Source of the DNA: Anaerolineaceae bacterium
GTDB lineage: Bacteria; Chloroflexota; Anaerolineae; Anaerolineales; Anaerolineaceae
DNA length: 33,882 nucleotides
Assembly (NCBI GenBank): GCA_028714615.1
Contig: JAQTMA010000017.1
Span: forward strand, 1-33,882
Direction: 5' to 3'
In this document: positions 1-33,478 of the stretch, in pieces
How positions within the stretch are numbered: position 1 is the first letter of the stretch
Layout: every line of letters begins with the position of its first letter
Translations under genes and position numbers: made by a program
Notes under the pieces: generated by a model
Database searches by the model: none
Told to the model about the DNA's origin: nothing
Seen by the model: the letters and a program-made list of their open reading frames with translations, nothing else

Positions 1-98
1 ACTCCTTGAAGCATACCGGAGGGGATCGTTAATTGAATTCCATCGTTTGCGCGTACTTTGCCGTAATGTTTATGGATATCGTTAAGCTCGATGATCAT
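1..98 (-). CDS. ABC transporter ATP-binding protein, N-terminal fragment (runs off the left edge)
   Basis: Reading leftward from an ATG at 98, 32 codons are open to the window edge. They give the start of an ABC ATPase of the sugar/nucleoside importer type: an early I-I-E-L-x-D-I-x-K-x-Y-G strand followed by V-R-A-N-D-G-I-x-L-x-I-P-x-G, the residues that normally lie just before the Walker A loop. An in-frame TAG lies six codons upstream, so this ATG is the first possible one; there is no clear Shine-Dalgarno. The gene follows the BMP lipoprotein gene on the same strand, the usual order for BMP-type nucleoside importers, so it is probably the energising subunit of that importer. Walker A and the rest lie outside the window. 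Confidence 0.8.
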   Translation of the reverse strand, partial: MIIELNDIHKHYGKVRANDGIQLTIPSGMLQG

Positions 99-138
99 AC
101 TATAGCCCGTTTTCTACAGGAGAAAATGGAAGAAAAGT

Positions 139-168
139 GGAGGGGAGAGCAGGGTAGCCCTCCCCTCC
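139..168 (-). terminator. Hairpin with T-rich tail after the BMP lipoprotein gene
   Basis: A nine-base-pair perfect stem (GGAGGGGAG at 139-147 with its complement at 160-168) lies just past the stop codon of the lipoprotein gene. Read on the minus strand it is followed by a T-rich run (ACTTTTCTTCCATTTTCT). This fits a rho-independent terminator or an attenuator lowering expression of the downstream ATPase gene relative to the binding protein. Confidence 0.5.
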
Positions 169-182
169 GGTCTACTCATAGA

Positions 183-1511
183 TTATTTACTTGGAACGCT
201 CTGTCCTTGCATTCCTTCAAGCAATTGCGGCATGTACCAGATCTGCTGATCCGTTGCAACCGCATCGGCTTTTAGGAATACCGATTTATCCTGGAAGTTC
301 AACGGTCCCTTCCACAAGTTCAAGCCACCCGCTAATTCAGCGATGAACTTGTCTACATTAGTGGAGGCATCACCAGTCAGCGCCTCACCCTTGACAAAGC
401 CGACGCCTGTCGTGTCTTTATTGTTGATGTCTTTCCAATCCGGAGGAACCCAATCAAACGTGGGTGTGAATTTCCCGTCGATGGCAGATTGGACCAACTT
501 CGTATAGGAAGGTCCCCAGTTAAAGTAGGGGACGCCTAAACAAACTTTGGGTGCAGAGCTGCAGTTGCCAGGATAATCATAGCCAACAGCCCAGACCTTC
601 TTGCCGGCAGCCGATGCCTTACCAGCCTCGACTACAGCTTCTGTAGTATCCAACCCAGACATGAGAACGTCAAACCCACTGTTGATGAAATCATTCGAAA
701 CCGTTGTGGGATCAGCCGTCATACCAGGAATATTGAACCAGAAACCGATCCAAGTGACTTTAAAGGTTAGATCGGCGGGGTTCTTCTTCAAATAGTTCGT
801 CCAGCAGTACTTCGCGCCGAGATATGCGGAATCGACGAAACGCCGGGTTTCATCATTGATCAGCGGACCGACATACCCAATCTTTCCGGTTTGGGTCGTC
901 AGGGCAGCCGCACACCCGGCGATCATTTTGGTGAACTCCATTTTCGGCATCACGTCAGCCAGCATGGGTTGGTTCTGGAAATCTTTACCTTCTTTCCAGG
1001 CATAATCCCCGGACGAGAAAATGGTAGCGATATCAGGATGGGCTTTGGTGAATTCAAGGACTCCATCCTTCATGTCATCCGAGCTAAAGATAACCAGTTT
1101 TGCGCCCTGGGCTACCAGGCTTTCAGCCAATTGGGAAGGACTGGTACCGGGGCGATCAGCGGTATTTACTTTATCAACATAAACCAGCTTGGCGCCAGTC
1201 TTTTCGGCAGCATACTGGGCGCCTTCGTAGTTTGCCTGGCTCCATCCCGAGTCATTTGCTGGGCCAACCAGCAAAATACCGAAGGTGAATGGAGTATTGC
1301 TAACAGGCGCAACCGTAGCTGCTTCTGTCGGAACTGGGGCAGTTGTCGGGACTTCTGTATTCATTACTGGAGCTGCAGTTGGTTGCTCAATTGGTGGGGT
1401 AGTTGGTTGGACAGGTGCGGATGTTGGCGTAGCGGCTGGCGCACAGGCTGAAAGCAACATCGCGAAAAGTACCAGCAGGGTAACGCCCTGCCACATCAAT
1501 TTGGTCTTCAT
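183..1511 (-). CDS. BMP-family substrate-binding lipoprotein of an ABC importer
   Basis: A 442-residue lipoprotein that would capture a nucleoside or related ligand outside the membrane for an ABC importer. Residues 1-23 are a signal peptide ending in the lipobox L-S-A-C (Cys23 lipidated). Residues 24-73 are a low-complexity Thr/Pro/Ala/Val linker, common in lipoproteins of Chloroflexota. From about residue 75 the mature domain has the BMP/Med (PnrA-like) pattern, with G-I-L-L-V-G near 78-83 and the D-S-G-W-S motif near 87-91. A GGAGGAG ribosome site lies six bases before the ATG. BMP proteins usually bind purine nucleosides, which matches the purine enzymes upstream, but some bind other ligands; the exact ligand cannot be read from sequence. 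Confidence 0.9.
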   Translation of the reverse strand: MKTKLMWQGVTLLVLFAMLLSACAPAATPTSAPVQPTTPPIEQPTAAPVMNTEVPTTAPVPTEAATVAPVSNTPFTFGILLVGPANDSGWSQANYEGAQYAAEKTGAKLVYVDKVNTADRPGTSPSQLAESLVAQGAKLVIFSSDDMKDGVLEFTKAHPDIATIFSSGDYAWKEGKDFQNQPMLADVMPKMEFTKMIAGCAAALTTQTGKIGYVGPLINDETRRFVDSAYLGAKYCWTNYLKKNPADLTFKVTWIGFWFNIPGMTADPTTVSNDFINSGFDVLMSGLDTTEAVVEAGKASAAGKKVWAVGYDYPGNCSSAPKVCLGVPYFNWGPSYTKLVQSAIDGKFTPTFDWVPPDWKDINNKDTTGVGFVKGEALTGDASTNVDKFIAELAGGLNLWKGPLNFQDKSVFLKADAVATDQQIWYMPQLLEGMQGQSVPSK

Positions 1512-1597
1512 TAGATCTCCTCCGAATCTGCATTAAACCTAAATGGGTCTCTGGATGATGATCGCTCGACGTATGAACAAACGACTGATGGACGCCG

Positions 1598-1609
1598 TTC
1601 ACCTCCTTT
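1598..1609 (-). promoter_or_regulatory. Extended anti-16S (AAAGGAGGTGAA) element in the leader, far from any start
   Basis: On the minus strand the bases read AAAGGAGGTGAA, matching the complement of the 16S rRNA 3' end over 11 bases. The real ribosome site of the lipoprotein gene lies much closer to its ATG. A near-identical element precedes the permease gene at 22863-22875. No convincing upstream ORF follows here. Confidence 0.35.
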
Positions 1610-1822
1610 CCAGGGGGTATCAAGACGACCGACATTGAGAAATGGAAAGCACAGACTGTTTTCTAGAAGCCTGGCAATCTTTCATCAATATCGCAGAACA
1701 AGATCAATATGAATCTTTAGTATTGTACCGCATTCTTTTTGCGGGTTATTAGTTTTAAGATTCTCAACAAGAATAAAACCTATCGGAGATACCGGTATTG
1801 AACACCATTAGTCTCAAACCGT

Positions 1823-1853: not shown

Positions 1854-1867
1854 ATATAGATAATACC

Positions 1868-2821
1868 TTATGGAACGATCCAGGTGCCGGTCTCACCCTT
1901 GAGAGCCCGTCCGATATTCTCGGGATTGGTGATCAGAGCTGATTTGCCGCCGGCCTCCAGGAACCAGATAATGGCCTGGATCTTGGGAGCCATGGAGCCC
2001 TTGGCGAAATGCGTGCCTTCCGCCAAATACTGCTTGGCTTCTGCCAGGGTCATCTTGTCGATAAACTTCTGATCCGGTTTGCCGAAGTTGAGGGCCACCT
2101 TTTCGACGGCGGTCGAAATGAGCAGAAGGTCAGCTTTGAGTTCGCGGGCCAGCAGGCTGCTGGCGAAGTCTTTATCGATGACAGCCGCGACGCCTTCCAG
2201 TTTGCCGGCATCATCACGGATGACCGGGATGCCGCCGCCGCCAACTGTGATCACGACCACGCCGCAGTCGATCAGGTCTTTCACGGCTTCGTACTCAATC
2301 ACCTCTTGGGGGATCGGCGAGGCAACCACCCGGCGCCAACCACGCCCGGCGTCTTCCACGACGGCCCAACCGAGATCCTTTGCCCGTTGTTTTGCCTCGG
2401 TTTCGTCCATGAAACCACCAATCGGCTTGGATGGGTTCTTAAAGGCTTTGTCGTCTTTATCAACCCGCACCTGGGTGATGACGCAGGCTGCGTTCTTTTT
2501 GACGCCGCGCGCCTTGAACTCATTCTGGAGATTCTGCGCCAACGCATATCCGATGGCGCCCTGGCTGTCGGCGCCACACACGTCCAGCGGCACCTCGTGC
2601 ATACCTTCCACTTTGTGGGCGATCTCCGAACGCTGGAGAATGAAACCGACTTGAGGGCCATTGCCGTGACCGATAGCCACATCCCAACCATCCTCGATCA
2701 TATCTGCAATATGGTGGCAAGACTCTTTCGCGGCCAGGTATTGGTCTTCTACGGATTGGTGCTGCTTATCTTTAATCAGGGAGTTGCCGCCAATCGCGAC
2801 GACTGCTACTTTTTTTACCAT
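1868..2821 (-). CDS. arcC: Carbamate kinase (ArcC/AllK/YqeA family)
   Basis: A 317-residue carbamate kinase, which converts carbamoyl phosphate and ADP to ATP, ammonia and CO2. The amino-acid-kinase fold is clear: A-I-G-G-N-S-L at 9-15, G-H-G-N-G-P-Q-V-G at 51-59, and a C-terminal A-K-G-S-M-A-P-K motif followed by I-T-N-P and G-x-x-G-T-W-I. The frame opens at 2830, but that ATG directly abuts the AAGGAG site; the ATG at 2821 lies nine bases from it and gives the usual N-terminus, so I chose it. It is the last gene of a run with two carbamoyltransferase paralogues, so it probably harvests their carbamoyl phosphate, and that made by AllFGH elsewhere in the window. Whether it serves purine, arginine or mixed catabolism is inference. 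Confidence 0.93.
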   Translation of the reverse strand: MVKKVAVVAIGGNSLIKDKQHQSVEDQYLAAKESCHHIADMIEDGWDVAIGHGNGPQVGFILQRSEIAHKVEGMHEVPLDVCGADSQGAIGYALAQNLQNEFKARGVKKNAACVITQVRVDKDDKAFKNPSKPIGGFMDETEAKQRAKDLGWAVVEDAGRGWRRVVASPIPQEVIEYEAVKDLIDCGVVVITVGGGGIPVIRDDAGKLEGVAAVIDKDFASSLLARELKADLLLISTAVEKVALNFGKPDQKFIDKMTLAEAKQYLAEGTHFAKGSMAPKIQAIIWFLEAGGKSALITNPENIGRALKGETGTWIVP

Positions 2822-2855
2822 TCCTATCATCTCCTTGAGTGTTATTATCTTGGGC

Positions 2856-3836
2856 TTAGCCCATTGTCAACGCCATGACGGCTTTTTGGGCATGTAGGCG
2901 GTTCTCGGCCTCGTCATAAACGACAGAGTTCGGGCCGTCGATCACTTCATCGGTCACCTCGATATTGCGGTCGGCCGGGAGGGGATGCATGTAAATGGCA
3001 TCCGGTTTAGCCAACCCGATCCGACGTTGGTCGGTGATCCAACTCTCGTACTTCTTGATGATCTTGGCGCCCTCTTCCGCATCGGGGGTGTGCACCATCG
3101 CGCCCCACGACTTGGCGTAGACAATATCGGCATCTTTGAAGGCGGCATCCATATCATCCACCACTTCGAATCCGACGCCGAATTTTCGCGCCTGTTCTTT
3201 GGCCTGCTCCATAATTTCGGGCATCAGGCGGAATTCCGGTGGGTGAGCCAACACCACGTCCATCCCAAAGCGTGGCATCTGCAACACCAGCGATTGGGGA
3301 ACGGACATGGGTTTCTGGTATGAAGCTGCATACGCCCATGAGACGACCATTTTCTTGCGGCGCAGGTCCCGGCCTTTTTTCTCGATGATGGTCATCAGGT
3401 CAGCCAGGCATTGGAAAGGATGATAGATCTCATCCTGCATGTTGAGCACCGGCACGCGCGAAGCCTTTGCAACGGCGTTGAGATACCCGTTGCCAACGCC
3501 CCAATCAACGTGACGGATGGCGATGCCATCGAAATAACGCCCGAAAATCTCGCCGATCTCTTTGGGGGTATCGCCATGCGAGATCTGCGTGGTACGGGAT
3601 TCGATGAAGGCGCCGTGCCCGCCGAGTTGGGCAATGCCTGCTTCGAAGGAACCACGCGTGCGGGTGCTGCTGAAAAAGAACAGCATTGCCAGCACCTTGT
3701 CTCGCAGGTAGGCGTGTGGTTCGTTCAGCGCGCGTTTGCGCTTCAAGTCAAATGCCACATCCAGGATGGTCTCGACTTCTTCTTTGCTGAAGTCGAGGTC
3801 CCCAATCAAGTCACGTCCGTGGAGGTAAGTTTGCAT
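2856..3836 (-). CDS. Ornithine carbamoyltransferase-family paralogue (YgeW-like)
   Basis: A 326-residue transcarbamylase. The carbamoyl-phosphate loop S-S-T-R-T-R is at 56-61, H-P-F-Q-C-L-A-D at 139-146, and the C-terminal M-H-P-L-P-A-D-R ends at 290, followed by an ornithine-carbamoyltransferase-like tail (E-V-T-D-E-V, N-S-V-V-Y-D-E-A-E-N-R). True ornithine carbamoyltransferases have H-C-L-P; here Cys is replaced by Pro, as in YgeW and other family members of unknown or non-ornithine substrate. The gene is 34 bases upstream of carbamate kinase and belongs to the same run as the deaminases, a layout recalling the E. coli ygeW/yqeA/ssnA region. A catabolic role, phosphorolysis of a ureido compound to carbamoyl phosphate, is inferred; the amino substrate is unknown. 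Confidence 0.85.
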   Translation of the reverse strand: MQTYLHGRDLIGDLDFSKEEVETILDVAFDLKRKRALNEPHAYLRDKVLAMLFFFSSTRTRGSFEAGIAQLGGHGAFIESRTTQISHGDTPKEIGEIFGRYFDGIAIRHVDWGVGNGYLNAVAKASRVPVLNMQDEIYHPFQCLADLMTIIEKKGRDLRRKKMVVSWAYAASYQKPMSVPQSLVLQMPRFGMDVVLAHPPEFRLMPEIMEQAKEQARKFGVGFEVVDDMDAAFKDADIVYAKSWGAMVHTPDAEEGAKIIKKYESWITDQRRIGLAKPDAIYMHPLPADRNIEVTDEVIDGPNSVVYDEAENRLHAQKAVMALTMG

Positions 3837-9737: not shown

Positions 9738-9747
9738 CACCAAATTC

Positions 9748-10626: not shown

Positions 10627-10697
10627 CATCATCTCCTCTGTTAACCATACGATTGGTTCTTGGGCTGATTCTACCGCAGAGCGAATTAAAAAGTGTG

Positions 10698-10725
10698 TTT
10701 TCCAGCGGTATTTCTCGCTTATAAT
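10698..10725 (+). promoter_or_regulatory. Probable promoter of the UDP-glucose dehydrogenase gene
   Basis: A consensus -10 TATAAT at 10720-10725 with a weak -35 (TTTTCC at 10698-10703, 16-base spacer) lies about 50 bases before the ATG at 10776 in the 149-base divergent region shared with folD. Only the -10 is convincing. Confidence 0.45.
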
Positions 10726-10775
10726 TGCCATTATTCCTGGACCCCGTAACAACACCATCCGAGAGGAGTTTTTTT

Positions 10776-22714: not shown

Positions 22715-22800
22715 ATGAATCTTCCTTCCTTTGTAGATTGAGTATTCCTTCAATAGGATGGATGGTAACAATCATCTTGAAATCAGGCAAGGCTCCCCTC

Positions 22801-23173: not shown

Positions 23174-23641
23174 CTATTGGGTAGCCGCTTTTTCTGCCAA
23201 ACGTTTTGCCAGAACTTTATCCAGGGTGTCAAAGCCCTTATTGATAATGCTTTTTCCAACACTGTCGATCAATCGTTGGCCAACACTCGCCAGCTTGCCG
23301 CCAATATTTAACTCGCCAACGTATGCCAGGCGGGTTTGCATGGCTCCTTCTTCGGATAAATGCACCGTGCCTACTCCCTTGGCAAAACCCGCGCCACCTG
23401 CACCCTGGACAGTAAGCGTGCAACTCTCGGGTGGGAGTTCATTCGAAACGGTTAGTTTTCCGGAGAATTTCCCACTGACCGGGCCAATGCGGATACCGAT
23501 GGCGCCTTCGTATTCGGTTGGGCTGATCTGCTTGAGCGTTTGCGTCCCTGGCAAACATTGCGCCAGTACTTCAGGATCTCGCACCATCGCCCAGACCTCG
23601 TCGCGGGGACCGTGGAAAACGTAATCACCTTCAAGCTTCAT
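23174..23641 (-). CDS. coxG: CoxG-type SRPBCC protein
   Basis: A 155-residue SRPBCC/START-fold protein of the CoxG family (M-K-L-E-G-D-Y-V-F-H-G-P-R-D-E-V-W, L-A-Q-C-L-P-G-T-Q, and Y-E-G-A-I-G-I-R-I-G-P-V-S-G-K-F-S-G). In CO dehydrogenase systems CoxG links the enzyme to the membrane and quinone pool. The start at 23641 follows AGGAGG; the frame to 23761 overlaps the hydroxylase gene without support. It is 58 bases downstream of the molybdenum subunit. It ends shortly after the SRPBCC domain, without the long linker and helix of many CoxG proteins. Confidence 0.88.
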   Translation of the reverse strand: MKLEGDYVFHGPRDEVWAMVRDPEVLAQCLPGTQTLKQISPTEYEGAIGIRIGPVSGKFSGKLTVSNELPPESCTLTVQGAGGAGFAKGVGTVHLSEEGAMQTRLAYVGELNIGGKLASVGQRLIDSVGKSIINKGFDTLDKVLAKRLAEKAATQ

Positions 23642-23699
23642 TTTGCTAACATCCTCCTGAAACGTAGTTGCCAATAACTCGAAAACCAATGGATCAGGT

Positions 23700-26045
23700 T
23701 TATTCGTTTTTGGCTTGTTGGACCAATTCAAACAACCGGTTGGGGCTGAGCGGTGCTTCACAGATGGTCAAATCCAGGTCGTATAGCGCATCTTCAACTG
23801 CCCGGATAAACGCCGGCGGGGTCGGAATGGCACCAGCTTCTCCAACACCCTTTATTCCAAGCGGATTCAACGGTGATGGCGTAGACAGGTGACCCACTTC
23901 CAGGGTCGGCATATCGGTCGCTCGCGGAATCAAGTAATCCGCGAAGGAACCATTTTGTAACTGGCCATTCTTATCCACCACGAGCTTCTCAAAAAATGAG
24001 TTGCCGATCCCGAGTTCAATGCCGCCGTGTACCTGACCATCCAGGATCAAAGCGTTGAGCACCGTTCCGCAGTCATGGGCAATCACGTAACGCAAGATCT
24101 TGACGTTAAAGGTGTCAGTATCTACTTCGACGATCATCGCACAGGTTCCACCCCCAGTTGCACCATAAGGAGGGCCGTAGTATGCCGTGGCTTCCAATCC
24201 GGGTTCACTACCGGGTTCGACCGCGCCGCGCGAGGGATTGGCCTTGGTAGCCAACTCACCCAGAGAAATGCACATACTGGGAATGTCAGCAACGCGAACA
24301 GTGCCGTCAACCAGCTCAAGCTCCTCTTCGGGAGTCTCCAGGATCTTGCTGGCGAGTTTAAGTATCTTTCCACGAACGAGAAGCGCTGCAGCGTTGATGG
24401 CGCTGCCAGCTACTGTGGCGCCGCGGCTGGCAAACGTGCCCGCACCCCAGTGGAAGACTTCCGTATCACCGGTGGTGACGAAGATGTTCTGTGGATCCAC
24501 ACCGATCTGTTCGGCTACTATTTGAGCAAAAGAGGTGAAGTGGCCTTGCCCCTGGGTACCTACACCAGTTGCCACCGCAACCTTACCGCTCGCCTCCACG
24601 GTAACCCGAGCGCCTTCATAAGGTCCGACACCGGAGCCTTCGGTGAACATGGCCACGCCTATGCCTACGTGCCGGCCAGCTTTACGTAGTTTGGGCTGTT
24701 CTTCTGTGATGAACTTCTCGTAATCCACCATTTGCAAACATTTATCCAGTGTGGCAGGAAAATTGCCGCTATCGAGAATGTTCTTGGCAAAGTCTTGACC
24801 GACAATCCCAGTCTTATACGGGAAGTCCTCAGGTTGGATCAAATTTTTACGACGCAGCTCGAGGCGATCCATGCCCAACTTCTTTGCAGCCAGATCCATC
24901 AAGCGCTCCATGACGAAGGTGCCGTACGTGCGACCCGCACCACGCAAAGGTGTGCACATGATGCGATTGGTGAAGACCACTGTGTACTCGGTGTAGTAGT
25001 TCGGCACCTTATATGGTCCCGTGGTATGGGTCTGGGTATTCAACGGAATTGTGAGAGCATATGAGTTGTAAGCGCCGGTATCGTGAAGGAAGGCATCCTT
25101 GACGCCCACGATTTTGCCCTCTTTGGTCAATGCAATCTCCGAATCGTGGATCTGCAACCGCTCTTGAGTGGTAGCCAGGAAGTTTTCCTGCCGGTCTTCA
25201 ATCCATTTGACCGGTTTCCCCAATTGCAAGGAAGCCCATGACACCAGGATCTCTTCGGGTTGGTATAGTAGGATTTTCGGTCCAAAACCACCGCCCACAA
25301 ACGGAGCAATGACCCGGATCTGATGCTCGGAAAGGCCGAGGATGGTGGCCAAGCCATTGCGCAAGGCAATCGGTCCCTGGGTGGTTGCCCACATGGTCAT
25401 GGATTGGTTCTTGGGATCCCAAGAAGCAACATAGCCCCGGTTCTCCAGAGCAGCAGCGGTACCGCGATCCATGATGAACCGCGCCTGGATGACCACGTCA
25501 GCCTTAGCGGCTGCTTCAGCATAATTGCCATTCTCTTGTTGCACGTGCGAGGCCAGGTTGGTATCGAGGTCCTCGTGCACCAAGGGGGAGCCGGGTTCCA
25601 GTGCCTGCTCGAGATCAATGACCACATCCAGGGGTTCCAGGTCGACAATAATGTCAGCCAGGGCATCTTCTGCCACATAACGGCTTTCAGCGACAACCAT
25701 CGCCAAGGCTTCCCCCTGGTGGTGGACGTAGTCCTTCGCCATGGGGACCTGAGTGCGTTTGTTAAAGGTGACACCCGGAATCCCGGAAGGCGGGGGTACA
25801 TTAAGCGGACCAGGTTTCCACACCGCGCCCATATCGGTAGGAGTATAGACAGCCACTACCCCGGGATGCGCTTTCGCGGCGCTGGTATCGATGCTGTTGA
25901 TGCGAGCGTGTGGATAGTCGCTGCGCAGGAAAGCAGCATGCAACATCCCTGGAAGCTCGACATCGTCGACGAAGAGCGCCTGCCCGGTCAGCAGCCGGGG
26001 ATCCTCATTTCGTTTGAGCCTTTGACCTAGATATTTTCCGGCCAC
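23700..26045 (-). CDS. Molybdenum hydroxylase large subunit (xanthine dehydrogenase / form II CoxL family)
   Basis: A 781-residue molybdopterin subunit that would hydroxylate a base or other heterocycle. N-terminal G-Q-R-L-K-R-N-E-D-P-R-L-L-T-G, G-G-G-F-G-P-K, R-G-A-G-R at 368-372 and the catalytic glutamate Glu736 in K-G-V-G-E-A-G are present. The R-G-A-G-R loop resembles form II CoxL; true CO dehydrogenases have a Cys-Ser-Phe-Arg loop, and classical xanthine dehydrogenases an R-G-F-G loop, so neither CO nor xanthine can be assigned from sequence. Start: a GTG at 26045 with GAGGTG before it, four bases past the iron-sulphur gene stop; the earlier GTG at 26075 would overlap that gene. It is third in FAD-FeS-Mo order, then coxG. 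No XdhC/CoxF-type cofactor-insertion gene is in the window. Confidence 0.92.
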   Translation of the reverse strand: MAGKYLGQRLKRNEDPRLLTGQALFVDDVELPGMLHAAFLRSDYPHARINSIDTSAAKAHPGVVAVYTPTDMGAVWKPGPLNVPPPSGIPGVTFNKRTQVPMAKDYVHHQGEALAMVVAESRYVAEDALADIIVDLEPLDVVIDLEQALEPGSPLVHEDLDTNLASHVQQENGNYAEAAAKADVVIQARFIMDRGTAAALENRGYVASWDPKNQSMTMWATTQGPIALRNGLATILGLSEHQIRVIAPFVGGGFGPKILLYQPEEILVSWASLQLGKPVKWIEDRQENFLATTQERLQIHDSEIALTKEGKIVGVKDAFLHDTGAYNSYALTIPLNTQTHTTGPYKVPNYYTEYTVVFTNRIMCTPLRGAGRTYGTFVMERLMDLAAKKLGMDRLELRRKNLIQPEDFPYKTGIVGQDFAKNILDSGNFPATLDKCLQMVDYEKFITEEQPKLRKAGRHVGIGVAMFTEGSGVGPYEGARVTVEASGKVAVATGVGTQGQGHFTSFAQIVAEQIGVDPQNIFVTTGDTEVFHWGAGTFASRGATVAGSAINAAALLVRGKILKLASKILETPEEELELVDGTVRVADIPSMCISLGELATKANPSRGAVEPGSEPGLEATAYYGPPYGATGGGTCAMIVEVDTDTFNVKILRYVIAHDCGTVLNALILDGQVHGGIELGIGNSFFEKLVVDKNGQLQNGSFADYLIPRATDMPTLEVGHLSTPSPLNPLGIKGVGEAGAIPTPPAFIRAVEDALYDLDLTICEAPLSPNRLFELVQQAKNE

Positions 26046-26049: not shown

Positions 26050-26553
26050 TCACCTCGTTTCAACCACTGCTTCACGCTGCTCGGCTATCGTCCTGGCTGC
26101 GGTCTTCACCGCATTGACGATGTGCTGGTAACCGGTGCAACGGCAAAGGTTCCCATCGATAACTTCACGCACCTCTTGGTCGGTAGGGTTCGCATTGGAT
26201 TCGACGAACGGCAAAACCGACATGATCATTCCAGGCGTGCAAAAACCACACTGTGCGCCATGTTCCTGGCGGAAGGCTTCCTGCAAAGGGTGCAGGTTTT
26301 CCATCGTTCCAAGACCTTCAATTGTGCGAATTTCATGGCCATTGGCCTGGGGAGCGAACATCAGGCAAGAGCGAAGGGGGGCCCCATCAAACAGGATCGT
26401 ACACGTACCGCATACACCGTGCTCGCAACCCACATGGGTGCCTGTCAGGCCCAGTTCATGGCGAATAAAATCCACCAACAACATACGCGGCTCGACAGTC
26501 CGTTCATACAGAGTACCATTCACGGTGACAGTAACATTAACGGGCTCAGTCAT
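26050..26553 (-). CDS. Molybdenum hydroxylase [2Fe-2S] subunit
   Basis: A 167-residue electron-transfer subunit with both cluster motifs complete: the plant-ferredoxin-type cluster on Cys43, Cys48, Cys51 and Cys63, and the C-terminal cluster on Cys102, Cys105, Cys137 and Cys139 (C-G-F-C-T-P-G and L-C-R-C-T-G-Y). It passes electrons from the Mo site to the FAD subunit. GGAGG precedes the ATG; it begins 11 bases after the FAD-subunit stop. Confidence 0.96.
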   Translation of the reverse strand: MTEPVNVTVTVNGTLYERTVEPRMLLVDFIRHELGLTGTHVGCEHGVCGTCTILFDGAPLRSCLMFAPQANGHEIRTIEGLGTMENLHPLQEAFRQEHGAQCGFCTPGMIMSVLPFVESNANPTDQEVREVIDGNLCRCTGYQHIVNAVKTAARTIAEQREAVVETR

Positions 26554-26564: not shown

Positions 26565-27437
26565 CTACTTCACGCGCTCGATGGCTTTACTCAGCGCCTG
26601 GACCGTAAGGACCTCGATGAGGTGCCGGCGGTATTCAGGAGAGCAATGGATATCACCGGCCGGATCGAAGTCAACATTGGCTGCCGTTTCGGCAGTTTTC
26701 TGGATGAGCTCCGGCGTCGGTACCCGGCCAATCAGAACGCTGGTGGCGTTCGGGGCGAAGGCAGGAGTCTCGCTGACGCTCAAATAAGTCAGGCGAACGT
26801 CCTGGCAGGCGCCCTGTGCATCCAGGGTGACCACGGCAGTAACGCCGACCAGGGCCTGCGCGCCTGCCTGGCGCGCCATCTGCTGGTAGCATACGCCGGT
26901 ATGAGCTGGCAGCGGTGGAATCTCAATCTCCACCAACAGCTCCTCCGGCTCGATCGCGGTCGTGAAGGAGCCGAGATAAAATTCATCCGCCGGGATGACC
27001 CGTTCCCCAGTTTTCCTGCGCAGGTGATAGCGAGCGCCCAATGCCAGAGTAACTGCAGGTAACTGCCCGGTAGGATCTGCATGGGCAATAGCCCCACCAA
27101 ACGTCCCGCGGTTTCGGATCTGGGGATGGGCGATGGTAACCATGGCCTCTTGGATTACCGGGAAGCGTTCAATGACAAGCGGATCGTGTTCTACGTCGCT
27201 ATCACGCGCCATTGCGCCGATCGCCACTCCGCCTTCCGGAGTGGGGCGGATGTACGAGAGTTCCGAGATATTATTCAGATCGAGCAGTGCGGGAGGCTGG
27301 GCCAGGCGGAAATTCATCGCCGGCACCAGGCTCTGTCCACCAGCCAGCACCTTCACGTCATACCCCAGGTCAGCAAGCAAATCCAGGGCTTCTGTAACGT
27401 TAGTCGGTGCATAGTAGTCAAACGGAGCTGGTTTCAT
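26565..27437 (-). CDS. Molybdenum hydroxylase FAD subunit
   Basis: A 290-residue FAD-binding subunit. The pyrophosphate loop V-L-A-G-G-Q-S-L-V-P is at 30-39, and the second FAD motif R-N-R-G-T-F-G-G-A-I-A-H-A-D-P is near residue 107. It completes a heterotrimeric hydroxylase with the two genes downstream. GAGGAGG precedes the ATG. It differs from the broken FAD-subunit remnant at 17586, which has A-G-G-T-D-like sequence, so the two are not recent duplicates. Confidence 0.94.
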   Translation of the reverse strand: MKPAPFDYYAPTNVTEALDLLADLGYDVKVLAGGQSLVPAMNFRLAQPPALLDLNNISELSYIRPTPEGGVAIGAMARDSDVEHDPLVIERFPVIQEAMVTIAHPQIRNRGTFGGAIAHADPTGQLPAVTLALGARYHLRRKTGERVIPADEFYLGSFTTAIEPEELLVEIEIPPLPAHTGVCYQQMARQAGAQALVGVTAVVTLDAQGACQDVRLTYLSVSETPAFAPNATSVLIGRVPTPELIQKTAETAANVDFDPAGDIHCSPEYRRHLIEVLTVQALSKAIERVK

Positions 27438-27488: not shown

Positions 27489-29159
27489 TTAGCCTTCCTT
27501 GAAGGCGACGAAGCGGCCCCACATTGATTCGATTTCCATCGCCTTCTGGACGAAGCAGCCGATGTAGTAACGGCCGCTCGTAGCCGTTGCCAGTTGCCCT
27601 GCCAGGTTTTCGGCGTGGACGATGCGTTTGGGGAACAAGTTGAGGTGCATATCCTGGTAGTATTTATCCAATGGGTACATCTCGTCCCAGTCTTTGCCAA
27701 AGTCACGCTTGAGCTTCTCGTTTGCTTCCTGGAAGGTTTTCGGATGCCAGATGCGCTGGATGGTGTTCATCGGATGATCCGCGGCGACGCAATCGACGCC
27801 AATCCACTTGATCTTCTTGTTTGCAGCCCATTCAGCGAAATCGGGTGACGGTCCCGGGTGTTTGATCATATAGCGGAATTCGTCCGAATCCGGGCTATTC
27901 CAGCCATACCGCCACCAACCGGTCTTGATAATCAGGATGTCGCCTTCGTGGACTTCGACCTGTCCTTCAATCATCTGCGGTGTATAAACACTCGAATTGC
28001 TGACTAGATGCGAGATATCCGCGATGACGCCTGGGCCAACCCACTCTTCCAACGGAACCTGGCCGATAGTCCGTCCATTCGGGTAGAAGTGTTTCTCACC
28101 ATCCATGTGGGTTCCTAAATGAATGGAAGCATTACAAATTGAGCCATTGCGACCCATCCCAAAATGTTGGCCACCAACCCGTTTGTTATACGTGACGGTT
28201 AAGGGAACATAATTGGCCCACTGAGGAGATTGGACGCTGAAGGGGACGGTCAAATCTAGTATCTCGGATTTATCCATTTCAGCGAAGAAAGCATCATCGC
28301 TCATATAACTTGGCGCCTGGTAGGCTGCCACCCGCGCCCAGGCGGCTTCAACTTCCATGAAGGGGATGGGCTGGCAAGTAATCCATGCGCGCTGGTTGCT
28401 CAACTTAGCGATATCGCCGACGATACATTCCACAAACACCAGGTGACCTTTGGGCATGGTGATATGGGTAAGCTCGTAATACTCATCCACCGGGAAATTC
28501 TCATCCCAGGTTTTGCCGGTTTCGCGGCAGATCTTCTCTTCCGCCAGCTTGAAGTGATTCTCGTGCATTCGGCGGATCGGGGTATTCATGGGATGCTCTG
28601 CGCAACCGCAATCCACACCGACCCACTTCAGGTTCATATCCAGCGCCCACTTATAAAAACCCATAGACGGACCTGGGTGACGAACCAGGTATCCAAATTC
28701 CTTGCCTTCGACGCCGCCCTGAGCGTTGGGATTGATTGTATCGGGCTGGTCCCAGGAATAACGGTTGTATCCGGTGTTGACAATCAGAATATCGCCCTTT
28801 TTGACATTCACTTTCTTCATGATCATCTCAGGCGTGTAGACACTGTAATCGGATACCAGGTCAGAAATATCCGCCACAACCCCGGGGCCGCTGAGAGCTT
28901 TGAGGGGAATGTCCGCTATAGCACGAGCACCGGAATGGAAAGCGCGCTCGCCAACCAGGTGAGTTCCGACAGTGTTGCTCCAGTTCAGAATCATCCCGTT
29001 CGCGCCTGCACCGCCGCCGTATGCGCCAGTCAAGCGCTTGAAGAAATGAACTTCGAGGGATTTTTCCCCTGGCCACGGAGGTGTAAAAATACTGCAACCC
29101 TGGGTCAGATCGAACATTTTGGCGTCAGCCATCATTTGAATAAACTTGTTGCGTTCCAT
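27489..29159 (-). CDS. Fused double cyclase-family protein, N-terminal domain lacking metal ligands
   Basis: A 556-residue fusion of two cyclase-family (PF04199) domains, each similar to the single-domain protein at 13079. The C-terminal domain (about 305-556) keeps the metal motif: His347, His351, Asp353 and His357 in H-L-G-T-H-M-D-G-E-K-H. The N-terminal domain (about 10-295) aligns residue for residue but has Thr63, His67, Val69 and Ala73, losing three of four ligands, while retaining the later G-V-D-C-G-C-A-E-H-P-M-N-T stretch. It probably serves as a partner or binding domain. Start at 29159 after GGAGG; the ATG at 29171 overlaps that site. It sits between allG and the hydroxylase genes in one operon. 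Substrate unknown; hydrolysis of a ring-derived amide is inferred. Confidence 0.9.
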   Translation of the reverse strand: MERNKFIQMMADAKMFDLTQGCSIFTPPWPGEKSLEVHFFKRLTGAYGGGAGANGMILNWSNTVGTHLVGERAFHSGARAIADIPLKALSGPGVVADISDLVSDYSVYTPEMIMKKVNVKKGDILIVNTGYNRYSWDQPDTINPNAQGGVEGKEFGYLVRHPGPSMGFYKWALDMNLKWVGVDCGCAEHPMNTPIRRMHENHFKLAEEKICRETGKTWDENFPVDEYYELTHITMPKGHLVFVECIVGDIAKLSNQRAWITCQPIPFMEVEAAWARVAAYQAPSYMSDDAFFAEMDKSEILDLTVPFSVQSPQWANYVPLTVTYNKRVGGQHFGMGRNGSICNASIHLGTHMDGEKHFYPNGRTIGQVPLEEWVGPGVIADISHLVSNSSVYTPQMIEGQVEVHEGDILIIKTGWWRYGWNSPDSDEFRYMIKHPGPSPDFAEWAANKKIKWIGVDCVAADHPMNTIQRIWHPKTFQEANEKLKRDFGKDWDEMYPLDKYYQDMHLNLFPKRIVHAENLAGQLATATSGRYYIGCFVQKAMEIESMWGRFVAFKEG

Positions 29160-29191
29160 TGTTTCCTCCATTTGAATGAAATGGGTTGGAT

Positions 29192-30436
29192 TTAAAACCC
29201 ATATTTCTCAGCATATGCGACCAGGGCATCTTCAAAAATATTGGCGGGCGGAGTTACCACCCCAGCGCCAACTTGACCGACACCGGGTTCCTTGTGAGCC
29301 ACACCGGTATTCACGCGCGGAAGGATGCCTTTTTCCACTACCTTACGGATATCGATTCCGGTAGGGGTTCCGCGGAAGTCAAGGTATGGGATGGTAAAGT
29401 ACTTGTTTTCTGCATAGCAGATTTCGTACATGTCCAGTGTCGTATTGATAGCATCCTTGGCGAGGCCGCCGATGAAAGTCACGATAGCTGGAGCGGAGGC
29501 CATGGCGAACCCACCGATTCCAGCCGTTTCGGTGATAGTGCTATCGCCAATATCCGGGTTCGCGTCGTTCTCCGTGAATCCAGGGAAATACAGGGCGTTT
29601 ACCTTTCCGGCCGGGCCGGTATACCAGCTATTTCCCAATCCGGAAACACGAATTCCAAAATCGGTGCCGTTGCGGGCCATAGCGGTCACAATCGTGCTGC
29701 CCTCGATATTGGCGCCTGCATCCGTGATGGTCTTGCAGCCTGCCATGACCGGGTTGAGGATTGAGAGGGCGTTCTCGCCCAGAAATTTCGTGACTTCGTA
29801 AGCAGTCGCAGAATCTTTGGCTACCTTGGCAATTGCTGGAGCGAGGGCCACGGTGTACAGGAGAGAAGCTGCATCCAGACGGTTGTGGCCATCATCCCCC
29901 ATATGCAGGGCTTTGCTGAGCAAGGAGCGCAAATCAATGCCGCCAGTTGACTCTAGGGCTGCGTTCACCGTCGGCCCTAGCACATCGTTCATCCACTGGA
30001 GTTTCGAGATCACTTCGGGGCTATAAGCCCCCATACGCAGAACTTTCCCACGGCCTTCGTTCAATCCGGAATAGCCTTTGTTGCCGTGGGTTTTGTTCTC
30101 GACCTCGTAAACCAGCATGGATGGCGAGATGACACCCGCCATTGGGCCGACCGCATTATGATGATGGCATGGAGCGAACTCGATCTTGCCCGCTTTGACC
30201 AACGCTACCGCTTCCGCATCGTCCCTGGCCATCCCCTCGAAAATCAAGGCGCCGTAGATAGCACCCTTAACCGGGCCAGCCATCCGTTCCCAGGATATAG
30301 GCGGACCTGCGTGGAGGAAAAGATTCTTGCGCATCCCCGGGATGACGTCGATGGCTTTGGCCACTCTGACAACCACGGGGCGCGATTCCATCATCCGCTC
30401 GACAGTTGCTGTATTAGCTTTTTCAATATCGATCAT
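29192..30436 (-). CDS. allG: Oxamate carbamoyltransferase subunit AllG (DUF1116, YlbE)
   Basis: A 414-residue DUF1116 protein with family stretches L-H-A-G-P-P-I-S-W-E-R-M, P-V-K-G-A-I-Y-G-A, C-H-H-H-N-A-V-G-P-M-A-G-V and M-A-R-N-G-T-D-F-G-I. In E. coli this subunit works with AllF and AllH to release carbamoyl phosphate from oxalurate. It follows allF after 62 bases, with GGAGG before the ATG, and precedes the double cyclase by 32 bases. The cytoplasmic location and complex are inferred from the family. Confidence 0.9.
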   Translation of the reverse strand: MIDIEKANTATVERMMESRPVVVRVAKAIDVIPGMRKNLFLHAGPPISWERMAGPVKGAIYGALIFEGMARDDAEAVALVKAGKIEFAPCHHHNAVGPMAGVISPSMLVYEVENKTHGNKGYSGLNEGRGKVLRMGAYSPEVISKLQWMNDVLGPTVNAALESTGGIDLRSLLSKALHMGDDGHNRLDAASLLYTVALAPAIAKVAKDSATAYEVTKFLGENALSILNPVMAGCKTITDAGANIEGSTIVTAMARNGTDFGIRVSGLGNSWYTGPAGKVNALYFPGFTENDANPDIGDSTITETAGIGGFAMASAPAIVTFIGGLAKDAINTTLDMYEICYAENKYFTIPYLDFRGTPTGIDIRKVVEKGILPRVNTGVAHKEPGVGQVGAGVVTPPANIFEDALVAYAEKYGF

Positions 30437-32223: not shown

Positions 32224-32556
32224 CTGAACCTCCGCTTTTCATTGATTTTGGATCGTCACCGGTTTGCTATTGCGCCTGTGAAGCGGCAAAGCCATGAATA
32301 TTGATGTTCTCGTGTCGGGCGAATGTTAATCAAACTCCATACCAGATCAGATTCTGGTATGGAGGTAGGATGGGCGTAGGTGGTTTGAATGGAAGGCAGG
32401 ATGGAGAGTGAGGATTATTAACATCTTCTCGGCTCGGAACGGAAAGCCCGGCACGCAATATATCAAAGGTGGTTTCGAACTACTCTTTTTTTCGTGGTTT
32501 TGACAAAAACCGAAGAAGTGTGGCCTGATCGGGCGACCGGATTGGCCACCGAAGTC
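32224..32556 (-). other. Long untranslated leader of the allF operon
   Basis: About 325 bases separate the predicted start of transcription near 32550 from the allF start. The stretch holds a G+C-rich possible hairpin near 32520-32550 (GTGGCC ... GGCCAC) and an 11-base-pair inverted repeat (TCCATACCAGA at 32336-32346 and its complement at 32353-32363, six-base loop). No ORF with a ribosome site and no recognised riboswitch class is visible. Confidence 0.45.
32336..32363. repeat. Perfect 11-bp inverted repeat in the allF leader
   Basis: TCCATACCAGA, loop TCAGAT, TCTGGTATGGA. It could be an RNA hairpin in the leader or an operator for a dimeric regulator. It lies 113 bases upstream of the TTG start and has no T-tract, so it is a poor terminator by itself. 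Confidence 0.6.
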
Positions 32557-32585
32557 AGTATAGCACCACAAAGAAGCAGAGTCAA
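32557..32585 (-). promoter_or_regulatory. Sigma-70-type promoter of the allF operon
   Basis: On the minus strand a -35 TTGACT (32580-32585) and a -10 TATACT (32557-32562) are separated by exactly 17 bases. This is the only strong promoter found upstream of the ten-kilobase minus-strand operon that ends with the permease. Confidence 0.7.
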
Positions 32586-32609
32586 CAATTTTCGGCAAAT
32601 AAACCGGCG

Positions 32610-32624
32610 TAATGTCTGACATTA
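32610..32624. promoter_or_regulatory. Palindrome TAATGTCTGACATTA, operator candidate
   Basis: A perfect 15-base inverted repeat sharing the TGTCTGACA core with the two sites at 9727 and 9752. It lies between the divergent promoters of the allF operon (25 bases from its -35) and the GNAT-like copy 2, so one regulator could act on both, and also on the deaminase run. Confidence 0.55.
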
Positions 32625-32684
32625 AGCCGATTAAACATCAGGGAAACCTACCAGCAAGAACATCCATAAAGCAGGACGCTCAGG

Positions 32685-32709
32685 TTGCCTGACAATCTCG
32701 GAGTATAAT
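32685..32709 (+). promoter_or_regulatory. Probable promoter region of GNAT-like copy 2 with a second operator-like site
   Basis: A consensus -10 TATAAT at 32704-32709 lies 44 bases before the ATG at 32753. No clear -35 is visible at standard spacing. TTGCCTGACAA at 32685-32695, one base off the TTGTCTGACAA palindrome, lies in the -35/-10 region, where a bound repressor would block polymerase. Confidence 0.4.
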
Positions 32710-32752
32710 CACGTTATATCCTTCCAACTTCATCACTAAGGAGTAAGCAAGC

Positions 32753-33478
32753 ATGAGACTCGAACCCCCAGAGAAAGTATCTCAAGAACAAATTACCATT
32801 GACGTCCGTGAGATTGAGCCATTACTTCAAGCGCCTCCCATGACCGTCAAGCCCTGGCCTGAGGCGATGATTACTCTGAAAGACGGTCGAATCCTGTACA
32901 TTCGCCAGGCAACCCTGGAAGATGTGCCCTTGATGTTGGAATACATGAAGAAAGTAATGGAAGTTGAGCACGACTTCTATGATATCGTCGGTGTCCGCAC
33001 CTACGCCGAAATCCTGGGCTGGGCGCGCAAACGCCTCAAGGATCCATTCCACCTGATTGGCCTTATCAATGGTGAATGGGCGGGATTAGCGAACGGACGC
33101 TTCTTCACCGAAGATGTTGCGATTTCTCTGCATACGATGACTTTCGCACGGGGAGGCCGCATCGGTTATGCCATGTATTACGCCAAGACCTATTATGCCC
33201 TGGAGATCAACAAGGTGAAAGAATGGTGGTCAACCTTCGAGAGCTATAACGGTTGGCGTATGGCCGGCCTCGAAATGGCGCAGCCCACCAAGCCCTGGCC
33301 CGAATACCAACACGAGCTGGGCGGCGCCACGATCTACTACGTCACTCAGCGATACTGGCAAACCTCCCTAAAAAACTTCACCAAGCAAATGATTGGCTCT
33401 GACCTGGTCTTCGACGTGCCCGTCGAAGTGCGCGAGGCCAACAAAGTTTTCCGTTTGCCCGAGAAAGTATTGGTCTGA
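32753..33478 (+). CDS. Unnamed GNAT-like protein, copy 2
   Basis: A 241-residue paralogue of the protein at 12254, equal in length and roughly two-thirds identical by eye, nearly identical over the first 28 residues (L-E-P-P-E-K-V-S-Q-E) and in the blocks H-D-F-Y-D-I-V-G, Y-A-E-I-L-G-W, I-S-L-H-T-M and K-P/Y-P-W-P-E-Y-Q-H-E-L-G-G-A. AAGGAG lies nine bases before the ATG. It is read divergently from the allF operon and followed by a clear terminator, so it is a single-gene unit. Having one copy beside each cyclase gene set suggests a shared role in the pathway; what it does is unknown. Confidence 0.9.
   Translation: MRLEPPEKVSQEQITIDVREIEPLLQAPPMTVKPWPEAMITLKDGRILYIRQATLEDVPLMLEYMKKVMEVEHDFYDIVGVRTYAEILGWARKRLKDPFHLIGLINGEWAGLANGRFFTEDVAISLHTMTFARGGRIGYAMYYAKTYYALEINKVKEWWSTFESYNGWRMAGLEMAQPTKPWPEYQHELGGATIYYVTQRYWQTSLKNFTKQMIGSDLVFDVPVEVREANKVFRLPEKVLV

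What the first reader, a model, noticed from the sequence alone, without database searches (positions are those of the whole stretch)
1..33478. Nucleobase/ureide catabolism island with three possible carbamoyl-phosphate-releasing enzymes and one carbamate kinase
Seen: AllF, AllG and AllH, two further transcarbamylase paralogues, carbamate kinase, two base deaminases, a molybdenum hydroxylase, a base permease and a BMP importer within 33 kb. Known: AllFGH plus carbamate kinase gives ATP in allantoin fermentation; YgeW, SsnA and XDH genes cluster in anaerobic purine degraders. Inferred: this organism ferments a base through ureido intermediates. The enzymes that normally make oxalurate (allantoinase, AllC, AllD) are absent, so the intermediate feeding AllFGH may be new, with the cyclase proteins as candidate ring or amide hydrolases. 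An oxidative pyrimidine route is a lower-probability alternative.
Basis: partly seen in the sequence, partly recalled or inferred. Interest (0 to 1): 0.85.

Follow-up and report, generated by a model that had tools for sequence, protein, structure and literature searches.

The report
Two adjoining nucleobase-fermentation gene modules
This stretch of DNA from an uncultured Anaerolineae-type bacterium joins two separate sets of genes for living off DNA and RNA bases, one that looks suited to a uracil-type base and one to purines, and each may save energy by a variant of a known route.

Summary
The gene inventory is right; the single-pathway reading is not. The window joins two independent Anaerolineae modules. 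(A) 183-10758: two base deaminases, GntR, an ATCase-like and a YgeW-like transcarbamylase, carbamate kinase, BMP importer; sister genomes have the uricolytic hydrolase YgeY in the ATCase-like slot and, in one, HyuA downstream. Probably lower reductive urate degradation with a second phosphorolysis replacing hydrolysis; a plain ATCase remains a serious rival, since most of the genomes with this gene showed no other ATCase. (B) 12254-33478: AllF, AllG, AllH, double and single cyclase, Mo hydroxylase, NCS2 permease, two GNAT proteins and, absent from the finding, a Na+-pump acyl-CoA decarboxylase in one operon with the single cyclase. The permease keeps four uracil-site residues of UraA, and the decarboxylase suits a malonyl-type thioester; so I favour oxidative uracil/thymine fermentation (barbiturate, ureidomalonate, AllFGH phosphorolysis) over the purine route. 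Substrates are inferred. In 199 genomes of the class, B's marker and A's transcarbamylase occur independently (p = 0.55); AllH tracks B's marker (p = 8e-8).

The parts
183..1511 (-). Module A: BMP-type importer, binding protein
   Evidence: PF02608 38.5 bits, cut-off 24; followed by ABC and two permease genes in sister loci
1868..2830 (-). Module A: carbamate kinase
   Evidence: TIGR00746 377 bits, cut-off 358; 52% to E. coli YahI, 50% to YqeA, 38% to AllK
2856..3836 (-). Module A: OTCL, YgeW-like transcarbamylase
   Evidence: 34% to E. coli YgeW with the shared WAYxxSYxKPxSVPQ stretch; PF02729+PF00185
3877..4347 (-). 23S-IVP-type gene between the two transcarbamylases
   Evidence: start found; a relative is PF05635, 91.5 bits
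4403..5353 (-). Module A: ATCL, ATCase-like transcarbamylase with an altered amino-acid-side motif
   Evidence: TIGR00670 250.9 bits, cut-off 237; residues
5441..6214 (-). Module A: GntR/UTRA regulator
   Evidence: PF00392, PF07702
6296..8224 (-). Module A: adenine-deaminase-like amidohydrolase (true start probably inside the ORF)
   Evidence: TIGR01178 358 bits, under cut-off 472
8231..9619 (-). Module A: 8-oxoguanine deaminase
   Evidence: NF006055 675 bits, cut-off 532
9748..10758 (-). Module A neighbour: FolD (name from recall of the sequence, not scanned)
   Evidence: relative present in 15 of 33 OTCL loci
12254..13072 (-). Module B: GNATa
   Evidence: 68% to GNATb, no family hit; GNAT near Cyc1 in 16 of 20 loci
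13079..13960 (-). Module B: Cyc1, single cyclase with intact motif HLGTHMDGEIH
   Evidence: PF04199 103 bits
14018..15157 (-). Module B: OadB-type carboxybiotin decarboxylase (Na+ pump, beta)
   Evidence: PF03977 441 bits; TIGR01109 377 bits, cut-off 191
15174..15614 (-). Module B: biotin carrier
   Evidence: PF00364
15617..15955 (-). Module B: small protein in the OadG position
   Evidence: position and length only; no Pfam hit
15968..17560 (-). Module B: MmdA-type carboxyltransferase
   Evidence: PF01039 632 bits; TIGR01117 776 bits, under cut-off 999
17604..17741 (-). remnant of the FAD subunit of a second Mo hydroxylase
   Evidence: 61% over 46 aa to the closest relative's copy
18234..19160 (+). 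Module B: AllH
   Evidence: PF11392 82 bits, cut-off 25
21290..22771 (-). Module B: NCS2 permease of uracil type
   Evidence: NF007995 uracil permease best of 4 models (219.8 bits, under its cut-off 477); UraA E241/H245/G289/E290 kept
23174..23761 (-). Module B: CoxG
   Evidence: PF06240 98.8 bits
23700..26075 (-). Module B: Mo hydroxylase, molybdopterin subunit (CoxL/glyceraldehyde-DH side)
   Evidence: CODH group 827, glyceraldehyde DH 609, XdhA 420 bits, all under cut-off; PDB best CoxL, then quinoline 2-oxidoreductase
26050..26553 (-). Module B: Mo hydroxylase, 2Fe-2S subunit
26565..27437 (-). Module B: Mo hydroxylase, FAD subunit
27489..29171 (-). Module B: Cyc2, double cyclase; C half with the full metal motif, N half without
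   Evidence: PF04199 twice; residues 26 of 26; fold
29192..30436 (-). Module B: AllG
   Evidence: PF06545 308 bits
30499..32223 (-). Module B: AllF
   Evidence: NF004760 549 bits, cut-off 433
32753..33478 (+). Module B: GNATb
   Evidence: no family hit; RimJ-like GNAT fold, Foldseek E 3.7e-7

Best explanation
Two separate energy-yielding base degradation modules lie side by side. Module B: a uracil-type permease imports uracil or thymine (inferred from binding residues); the Mo hydroxylase oxidises it to (methyl)barbiturate (inferred); a cyclase (Cyc2 C half or Cyc1) opens the ring to ureido-(methyl)malonate (inferred from fold and metal motif); AllFGH cleaves this with phosphate into carbamoyl phosphate and (methyl)malonamate, as it cleaves oxalurate into oxamate (inferred by analogy); the amide becomes a CoA thioester (CN hydrolase or amidase plus family-III CoA-transferase in some relatives, perhaps the GNAT pair here); MmdA-OadG-BCCP-OadB decarboxylates it and pumps Na+ (family knowledge). 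Module A: the lower part of reductive urate degradation, in which the YgeW-like OTCL and the ATCase-like ATCL phosphorolyse the two ureido groups of 2,3-diureidopropionate, ATCL standing in for the hydrolase YgeY. The one kinase seen in the window could turn carbamoyl phosphate of both modules into ATP (inferred).
For: Permease: at UraA E241, H245, G289, E290 the residue is kept in 32, 29, 29 and 32 of 32 cluster proteins; XanQ and UacT differ at three. MmdA-OadG-BCCP-OadB-Cyc1-GNATa are spaced by 2-57 bases; at Cyc1 of relatives AllH lies within 3 kb in 16, GNAT in 16, OadB and MmdA in 9 of 20 loci. L013 carries CoA-transferase, MmdA, BCCP, Cyc1, AllF, CN hydrolase, AllG, Cyc2, Mo hydroxylase, CoxG and the uracil-type permease. 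AllH tracks Cyc2 (22 of 30 against 37 of 169, p = 8e-8) and Cyc1 (37 of 49 against 22 of 150, p = 6e-15). The CoA-transferase is nearest to succinate-glutarate/HMG enzymes. Module A: YgeY (474 bits, cut-off 321) or ATCL lies within 4 kb of OTCL in 15 and 13 of 33 loci, both in 1; by genome 12 ATCL only, 17 YgeY only, 4 both, 2 neither, p = 1.4e-4. SsnA passes its cut-off in 30 of 35 genomes. In G011 a HyuA homologue (320 bits) lies 11 kb downstream of OTCL. ATCL keeps STRT, RH and HPTQ but has EPVVQPDY for TRxQKERF in 16 of 16 full-length orthologues; 13 of 13 canonical ATCases fetched keep TRxQ(K/R)ERF.
Against: No CoA-transferase or amidase was identified in the window. OadB is in only 23 of 35 Cyc2 genomes, and 5 of 20 Cyc1 loci have a thiolase instead of or beside the rest. 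3 of 32 permeases lack the uracil pattern; BMP importer genes lie in 14 of 80 loci. Against ATCL as a YgeY substitute: NCBI's model calls it ATCase; 12 of 16 genomes with ATCL showed no second, canonical ATCase at E <= 1e-30, while 16 of 19 without ATCL did (p = 6e-4); none was found in 1.25 of 1.65 Mb of G011. This would be expected if ATCL were their ATCase. A more distant ATCase type could have been missed, and 3 genomes show neither. Four genomes have both ATCL and YgeY. YgeX has only weak counterparts (24.7-44 bits). Counts are not corrected for kinship.
Confidence: 0.37

Rival explanations
1. Module B makes oxalurate by another road (for example hydantoin to parabanate to oxalurate), and AllFGH does its known reaction, giving oxamate and carbamoyl phosphate.
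For: AllFGH activity is reported for oxalurate/oxamate (PMC11326118, abstract and passages); a five-ring imide would suit an isatin-hydrolase-like fold; family-III CoA-transferases include oxalate enzymes.
Against: Uracil-type permease; a biotin/Na+ decarboxylase suits a malonyl-type thioester rather than oxalyl-CoA (family knowledge); no TPP oxalyl-CoA decarboxylase among the recurrent neighbours that were scanned (not all families were scanned); the CoA-transferase is nearer to the glutarate enzyme; the clade's AllG is about as far from E. coli AllG as from YahG.
Confidence: 0.2
2. One integrated purine pathway.
For: All genes lie within 33 kb; in the closest relative G022 Cyc2 and OTCL are 35 kb apart on one contig.
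Against: The halves are more than 60 kb apart or on different contigs in 29 of 30 other genomes and occur independently in the class (p = 0.55); the Mo enzyme is on the CoxL/glyceraldehyde DH side.
Confidence: 0.1
3. ATCL is the organism's own, divergent aspartate transcarbamylase placed in a base-salvage operon, and the YgeY slot pattern is an accident of descent.
For: ATCL passes TIGR00670; 12 of 16 genomes with ATCL showed no canonical ATCase against 3 of 19 without it; four genomes have both ATCL and YgeY.
Against: The TRxQKERF motif and the 80s-loop lysine (aspartate roles recalled) are gone in 16 of 16; four genomes have ATCL and a canonical ATCase; the gene sits with carbamate kinase and base deaminases; two genomes without ATCL and YgeY have tandem OTCL genes plus kinase.
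Confidence: 0.25
4. Module B degrades a non-pyrimidine N-heterocycle by a longer route.
For: A second, more XDH-like Mo hydroxylase precedes MmdA in several relatives, with a remnant in the window; a thiolase gene near Cyc1 in 5 of 20 loci.
Against: No intact second enzyme lies beside MmdA here; the permease pattern.
Confidence: 0.2

Closest known systems
Anaerobic allantoin branch with oxamic transcarbamylase AllFGH and AllK (E. coli; PMC11326118)
   Same: Three homologous subunits, carbamate kinase in the window
   Different: AllB, AllC, AllD not met among 23 proteins scanned; AllG 48%, AllF 39% identical; AllG of the clade separate from E. coli AllG and YahG; AllH encoded apart, with Cyc1 and, in part of the relatives, the Na+ pump
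E. coli yahEFG-yahI-yahJ (function unknown to me)
   Same: AllHFG-type trio; kinase 52%, AllF 45%, AllG 49% identical, nearer than AllK and AllF; an amidohydrolase like that of L077 (26%)
   Different: no cyclase, Mo hydroxylase or Na+ pump among the genes annotated in the stretch fetched
Reductive urate pathway (E. [quoted passage not shown] PMC12507026)
   Same: YgeW-like enzyme, carbamate kinase, YgeY in the same slot in sister genomes, HyuA homologue downstream in G011, SsnA in 30 of 35 genomes, with F420-synthesis-like genes beside it, as that paper reports an F420-type reductase for Chloroflexota
   Different: ATCL instead of YgeY in part of the genomes; module A lies apart from SsnA; deaminases and a BMP importer in the operon; only weak YgeX counterparts
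Oxidative pyrimidine pathway (uracil, barbiturate, ureidomalonate, urea and malonate; recalled)
   Same: Proposed intermediates
   Different: known barbiturase is of the cyanuric-hydrolase family (recalled); here a KynB-fold cyclase and phosphorolysis
Na+-translocating methylmalonyl-CoA/malonate decarboxylases (MmdA/OadB type)
   Same: alpha, beta, biotin carrier and a small protein in the gamma position
   Different: operon shared with a cyclase and a GNAT protein; substrate not known

Membership tests
Oxamic transcarbamylase AllFGH | AllF, AllG and AllH all encoded | tested here: met
   AllH in 34 of 35 Cyc2 genomes searched
Oxamic transcarbamylase AllFGH | phosphorolysis of oxalurate | not testable with these tools
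   needs purified enzyme
Oxamic transcarbamylase AllFGH | allantoin-pathway genes that make oxalurate alongside | tested here: not met
   none among the 23 window proteins scanned; other ORFs not scanned
YgeW carbamoyltransferase | passes TIGR03316/NF005538 | tested here: not met
   175 of 500 and 183 of 453 bits; so YgeW-like, not filed as YgeW
YgeW carbamoyltransferase | shared WAYxxSYxKPxSVPQ stretch | tested here: met
Aspartate carbamoyltransferase (for ATCL) | carbamoyl-phosphate motifs STRT, RH, HPTQ (roles recalled) | tested here: met
   16 of 16 full-length orthologues
Aspartate carbamoyltransferase (for ATCL) | aspartate motif TRxQ(K/R)ERF and 80s-loop lysine (roles recalled) | tested here: not met
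   EPVVQPDY and (A/P)KMTRAGD(W/F)Y in 16 of 16; not filed as ATCase although TIGR00670 is passed
Reductive urate pathway | SsnA in the genome | tested here: inconclusive
   over cut-off in 30 of 35 relatives; the window's own genome is not held
Reductive urate pathway | YgeY | tested here: inconclusive
   not among the window proteins scanned; over cut-off in 21 of 35 relatives
Reductive urate pathway | HyuA | tested here: inconclusive
   not seen in the window; strong homologue 11 kb downstream of OTCL in G011 (320 bits) and in 3 of 33 OTCL loci (156-364 bits); most loci end before that point
Reductive urate pathway | YgeX | tested here: inconclusive
   PALP-fold genes after the importer match E. 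coli YgeX at 24.7-43.9 bits in 16 of 33 loci; under the ammonia-lyase cut-off
Uracil permease (UraA type) | E241, H245, G289, E290 (roles recalled) | tested here: met
   the curated model is best but under its cut-off
Na+-translocating decarboxylase | OadB over curated cut-off with carboxyltransferase and biotin carrier adjoining | tested here: met
PF04199 cyclase/KynB fold | HxGTHxDxxxH metal motif | tested here: met
   Cyc1 and, in the variant H-L-(G/A)-T-H-M-D, the C half of Cyc2; the N half has N66 and V73 in place of His and Asp in 26 of 26

The most novel reading that the evidence does not exclude
Anaerolineae ferment uracil or thymine by an oxidative route not described in anaerobes to my knowledge: Mo hydroxylase to barbiturate, KynB-fold barbiturase, phosphorolytic cleavage of ureidomalonate by an AllFGH-type enzyme, and Na+-pumping decarboxylation of malonyl-CoA, with a pair of GNAT proteins making the thioester directly from the amide in place of amidase plus CoA-transferase (the two solutions do not meet at one AllF locus: 27 against 17 of 51, 0 both, 7 neither); and next to it a urate pathway in which both ureido groups yield carbamoyl phosphate.
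Probability: 0.13. Interest if true: 0.9.

Novelty: new variant of a known kind. Interest (0 to 1): 0.68.

Why it matters
A 2021 study of DNA degraders in marine sediments says it could not look for anaerobic pyrimidine-base catabolism because the enzymes were unknown (PMC8289736, passages seen), and proposes Chloroflexota as DNA users at depth. Module B offers named candidates in a widespread, mostly uncultured group and in records titled Anaerolinea thermophila and Bellilinea caldifistulae. It would extend the AllFGH reaction type beyond oxalurate and give KynB-fold cyclases a role in opening base rings. Module A, if ATCL acts on a ureido acid, would show that the hydrolytic ureido cleavage of the urate pathway can be swapped for a second ATP-yielding phosphorolysis, bearing on the cleavage order that PMC12990295 calls unsettled (part 1 of 2 of the text seen).

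Tried and rejected
The XDH reading of the Mo enzyme: CoxL and glyceraldehyde-DH models score higher than XdhA. Oxalate via a formyl-CoA type CoA-transferase: the glutarate-type model scores higher (416 against 281 bits). A strict rule that GNAT and CoA-transferase exclude each other by genome: G006, G015, G018 and G019, with the CoA-transferase at AllF, have a distant GNAT (37-46%), so I claim it only for the AllF locus. Co-occurrence of the two modules: it looked strong in 35 Cyc2 genomes (30 with OTCL full length at 69% or more), but the class-wide control removed it. AllG tree: FastTree, midpoint root, no branch support used. GNAT fold search: acetyltransferases, no substrate. Cyc2 model: two stretches under pLDDT 50 (28-67, 313-351) reach into or near the metal-motif regions.

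Literature: searches (0 papers; 3, unrelated; 6; 1) gave no paper on a barbiturase of this kind or on ureidomalonate with a carbamoyltransferase; 40 (23 papers, 20 listed), 89 (3) and 112 (0) none on a two-transcarbamylase urate pathway, judged by listings. The library lacks most subscription papers. Papers opened: PMC11326118 (abstract, passages), PMC12625717 (passages; allFGH in nitrifiers, not used above), PMC12507026 (abstract, passages, sections 3 and 9), PMC12990295 (part 1 of 2), PMC8289736 (passages).

Those fetched come from genomes without it; 12 of 16 ATCL genomes showed no canonical one. I read 1,254,487 of about 1,654,487 bases of G011 for one: none, but HyuA was found. The odds of the best explanation were lowered and those of the ATCase rival raised for this.

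Limits of counts: 35 of 80 loci were taken on as genomes, chosen for long contigs; 80 of 150 confirmed loci were kept by the tool; many loci end near the match. The 33 OTCL loci come from 30 genomes and include 6 around OTCL paralogues or more distant copies (L128-L133). My ORF caller missed YgeY in L117 (one search places it beside OTCL) and took antisense ORFs in L006 and L027. FolD, UDP-glucose dehydrogenase and NmrA are named from recall. Ligand and motif roles (UraA, ATCase, KynB) are recalled.

Full report
OBSERVATION. The finding leaves out 14018-17560: MmdA-type carboxyltransferase, a small protein, biotin carrier and OadB, that is, a biotin-dependent Na+-pump acyl-CoA decarboxylase. 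With Cyc1 and GNATa these lie on one strand with gaps of 12, 2, 16, 57 and 6 bases.

RELATIVES. Cyc2 has many close relatives, some named Anaerolineaceae or Anaerolinea thermophila. A scan of genome contigs confirmed 150 loci and kept 80; 76 of the 80 titles name Chloroflexi, Chloroflexota or a group of theirs, the others are L063, L072, L075 and L078. Around Cyc2, by ORF clusters: AllG in 70 of 80 loci, AllF 65, Mo-hydroxylase FAD subunit 64, Mo subunit 60, CoxG 44, NmrA-like 43, permease 31, GNAT 29, CN hydrolase 14, BMP 14, family-III CoA-transferase 13, amidase 9 (named). Many loci are cut short. Carbamate kinase, OTCL, GntR and the two deaminases of the window matched nothing in the 80 at E <= 1e-10; ATCL had one weak hit.

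TWO MODULES, NOT ONE. OTCL was sought in 35 of these genomes (chosen for long contigs): 30 have it full length at 69% identity or more, in a second locus whose usual order is FolD, 8-oxoguanine deaminase, adenine deaminase, GntR, ATCL or YgeY, OTCL, carbamate kinase, BMP, ABC, two permeases. But in 199 genomes of the class Cyc2 occurs in 30 (E <= 1e-150) and OTCL in 114 (E <= 1e-100), together in 19: 19 of 30 against 95 of 169, p = 0.55. In 30 genomes where both were placed they share a contig in 4 and lie within 60 kb in 1, G022. So the window joins two independent systems. By contrast Cyc1 and Cyc2 lie within 20 kb in 10 of 16 genomes where they share a contig (30 placed); in the class Cyc1 goes with Cyc2 (15 of 30 against 34 of 169, p = 0.001), and AllH with Cyc2 (22 of 30 against 37 of 169, p = 8e-8) and with Cyc1 (37 of 49 against 22 of 150, p = 6e-15). 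Kinship is not corrected for.

MODULE B. AllH lies in 34 of 35 genomes, within 3 kb of Cyc1 in 16 of 20 fetched loci; GNAT is there in 16, OadB and MmdA in 9, a thiolase in 5. OadB is in 23 of the 35 genomes. In several relatives a second, more XDH-like Mo hydroxylase precedes MmdA; the window keeps a 46-residue remnant of its FAD subunit at 17604-17741 (61% identity). L013 holds CoA-transferase, MmdA, BCCP, Cyc1, AllF, CN hydrolase, AllG, Cyc2, Mo hydroxylase, CoxG and permease together. The permease is the best substrate clue: at UraA E241, H245, G289, E290 (roles recalled) the residue is kept in 32, 29, 29 and 32 of 32 proteins, while E. coli XanQ and UacT differ at three; the exceptions are L072, L075, L078. 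Cyc2's C half has its metal-motif residues in 26 of 26 sequences, its N half Asn and Val in place of two of them in 26 of 26; the model (mean pLDDT 78, weak at 28-67 and 313-351) matches kynurenine formamidase and isatin hydrolase. The CoA-transferase is closest to succinate-glutarate/HMG CoA-transferase. L077 adds a cytosine-deaminase-like gene, under its model's cut-off. A malonyl-type product fits the decarboxylase; uracil oxidised to barbiturate and opened to ureidomalonate would give it after phosphorolysis. That chain is inference.

GNAT OR AMIDASE PLUS COA-TRANSFERASE. Of 51 loci with AllF starting at least 2 kb in, 27 have a GNAT gene near AllF, 17 a CN hydrolase, amidase or CoA-transferase, none both, 7 neither. 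In the AllG tree L002, L004, L006, L007 (with CoA-transferase) fall inside the mainly GNAT-bearing clade, which suggests more than one old split. Of 19 genomes with a close GNAT 18 have two copies, mostly one at AllF and one at Cyc1; in G026 both lie beside OadB. I read the pair, with low confidence, as the route to the CoA thioester. Against strict exclusion: four CoA-transferase genomes have a distant GNAT.

MODULE A. OTCL is 34% identical to E. coli YgeW and shares its WAYxxSYxKPxSVPQ stretch but fails the YgeW models. YgeY of a sister genome passes its model (474 bits). Within 4 kb of OTCL, YgeY is found in 15 of 33 loci, ATCL in 13, both in 1; by genome 12 have ATCL only, 17 YgeY only, 4 both, 2 neither, p = 1.4e-4. 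The two with neither have tandem OTCL genes and a kinase. ATCL keeps STRT, RH and HPTQ but has EPVVQPDY for TRxQKERF and lacks the 80s-loop lysine in all 16 full-length orthologues; 13 of 13 canonical ATCases fetched from other genomes of the set keep the motif. SsnA is over its cut-off in 30 of 35 genomes; two gene families beside it, present in 18 and 12 of 20 SsnA loci, match F420 synthesis enzymes CofE and CofD, in line with the F420-type variant that Li et al. report for Chloroflexota (PMC12507026; abstract, passages, sections 3 and 9 seen). In G011, of which 1.25 of 1.65 Mb was read, a HyuA homologue (320 bits) and a PALP gene weakly like YgeX (41 bits) follow the module. In the published pathway YgeW phosphorolyses one ureido group of 2,3-diureidopropionate and YgeY hydrolyses the other; ATCL in YgeY's place suggests phosphorolysis of both. 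This is inference from position and residues.

AGAINST THAT READING OF ATCL. Of 16 genomes with ATCL only 4 showed a canonical ATCase at E <= 1e-30, of 19 without it 16 did (p = 6e-4), and none was found in the part of G011 that was read. ATCL may therefore be the ATCase of these bacteria. A more distant ATCase could have been missed, and G004, G027 and G033 show neither. Complementation of a pyrB deletion would decide.

VERDICT. Confirmed genes, partly supported interpretation. Most likely two fermentation modules with carbamoyl phosphate as energy currency: one probably pyrimidine-oxidising and tied to a Na+ pump, one probably the lower urate pathway, perhaps in a two-transcarbamylase form. 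New variants of known kinds, open to direct test.

Noticed in passing
window 3877-4347: A 23S-rRNA-intervening-sequence-type gene sits between ATCL and OTCL; its kind also sits between AllG and Cyc2 in L020, L032, L048, L059 and L079 and around OTCL in L104, as if it inserts into catabolic operons.
   Followed up: partly
window 17604-17741: Remnant of the FAD subunit of a second Mo hydroxylase that the closest relative has (L157).
   Followed up: yes
L215 (G002:C39:34071-35399): One open frame of 486 aa that matches the first half of ATCL and the last two thirds of OTCL, with YgeY close by: a fused or deleted pair, or an assembly fault.
   Followed up: no
L175-L194 (SsnA loci): Families s1 (CofE-like, 18 of 20 loci) and s5 (CofD-like, 12 of 20) lie beside SsnA, supporting an F420-linked urate or yanthine reduction.
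   Followed up: partly
L075, L078: Loci titled Caldiserica/Caldisericota have AllG, Cyc2, a Mo hydroxylase and a GNAT but a permease without the uracil pattern, and my search labelled no AllF there: perhaps another substrate.
   Followed up: no
L130, L131, L132: Tandem OTCL-OTCL-carbamate kinase sets, a second way to two transcarbamylases per kinase.
   Followed up: no
Cyc2 N half, window about 28270-29171: The N-terminal cyclase half has Asn66 and Val73, 26 of 26, where metal ligands are expected: a conserved pseudo-active site or a different chemistry.
   Followed up: partly
35 Cyc2 genomes: Canonical ATCase and ATCL avoid each other by genome (4 of 16 against 16 of 19), unexplained under the main reading of module A.
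   Followed up: partly
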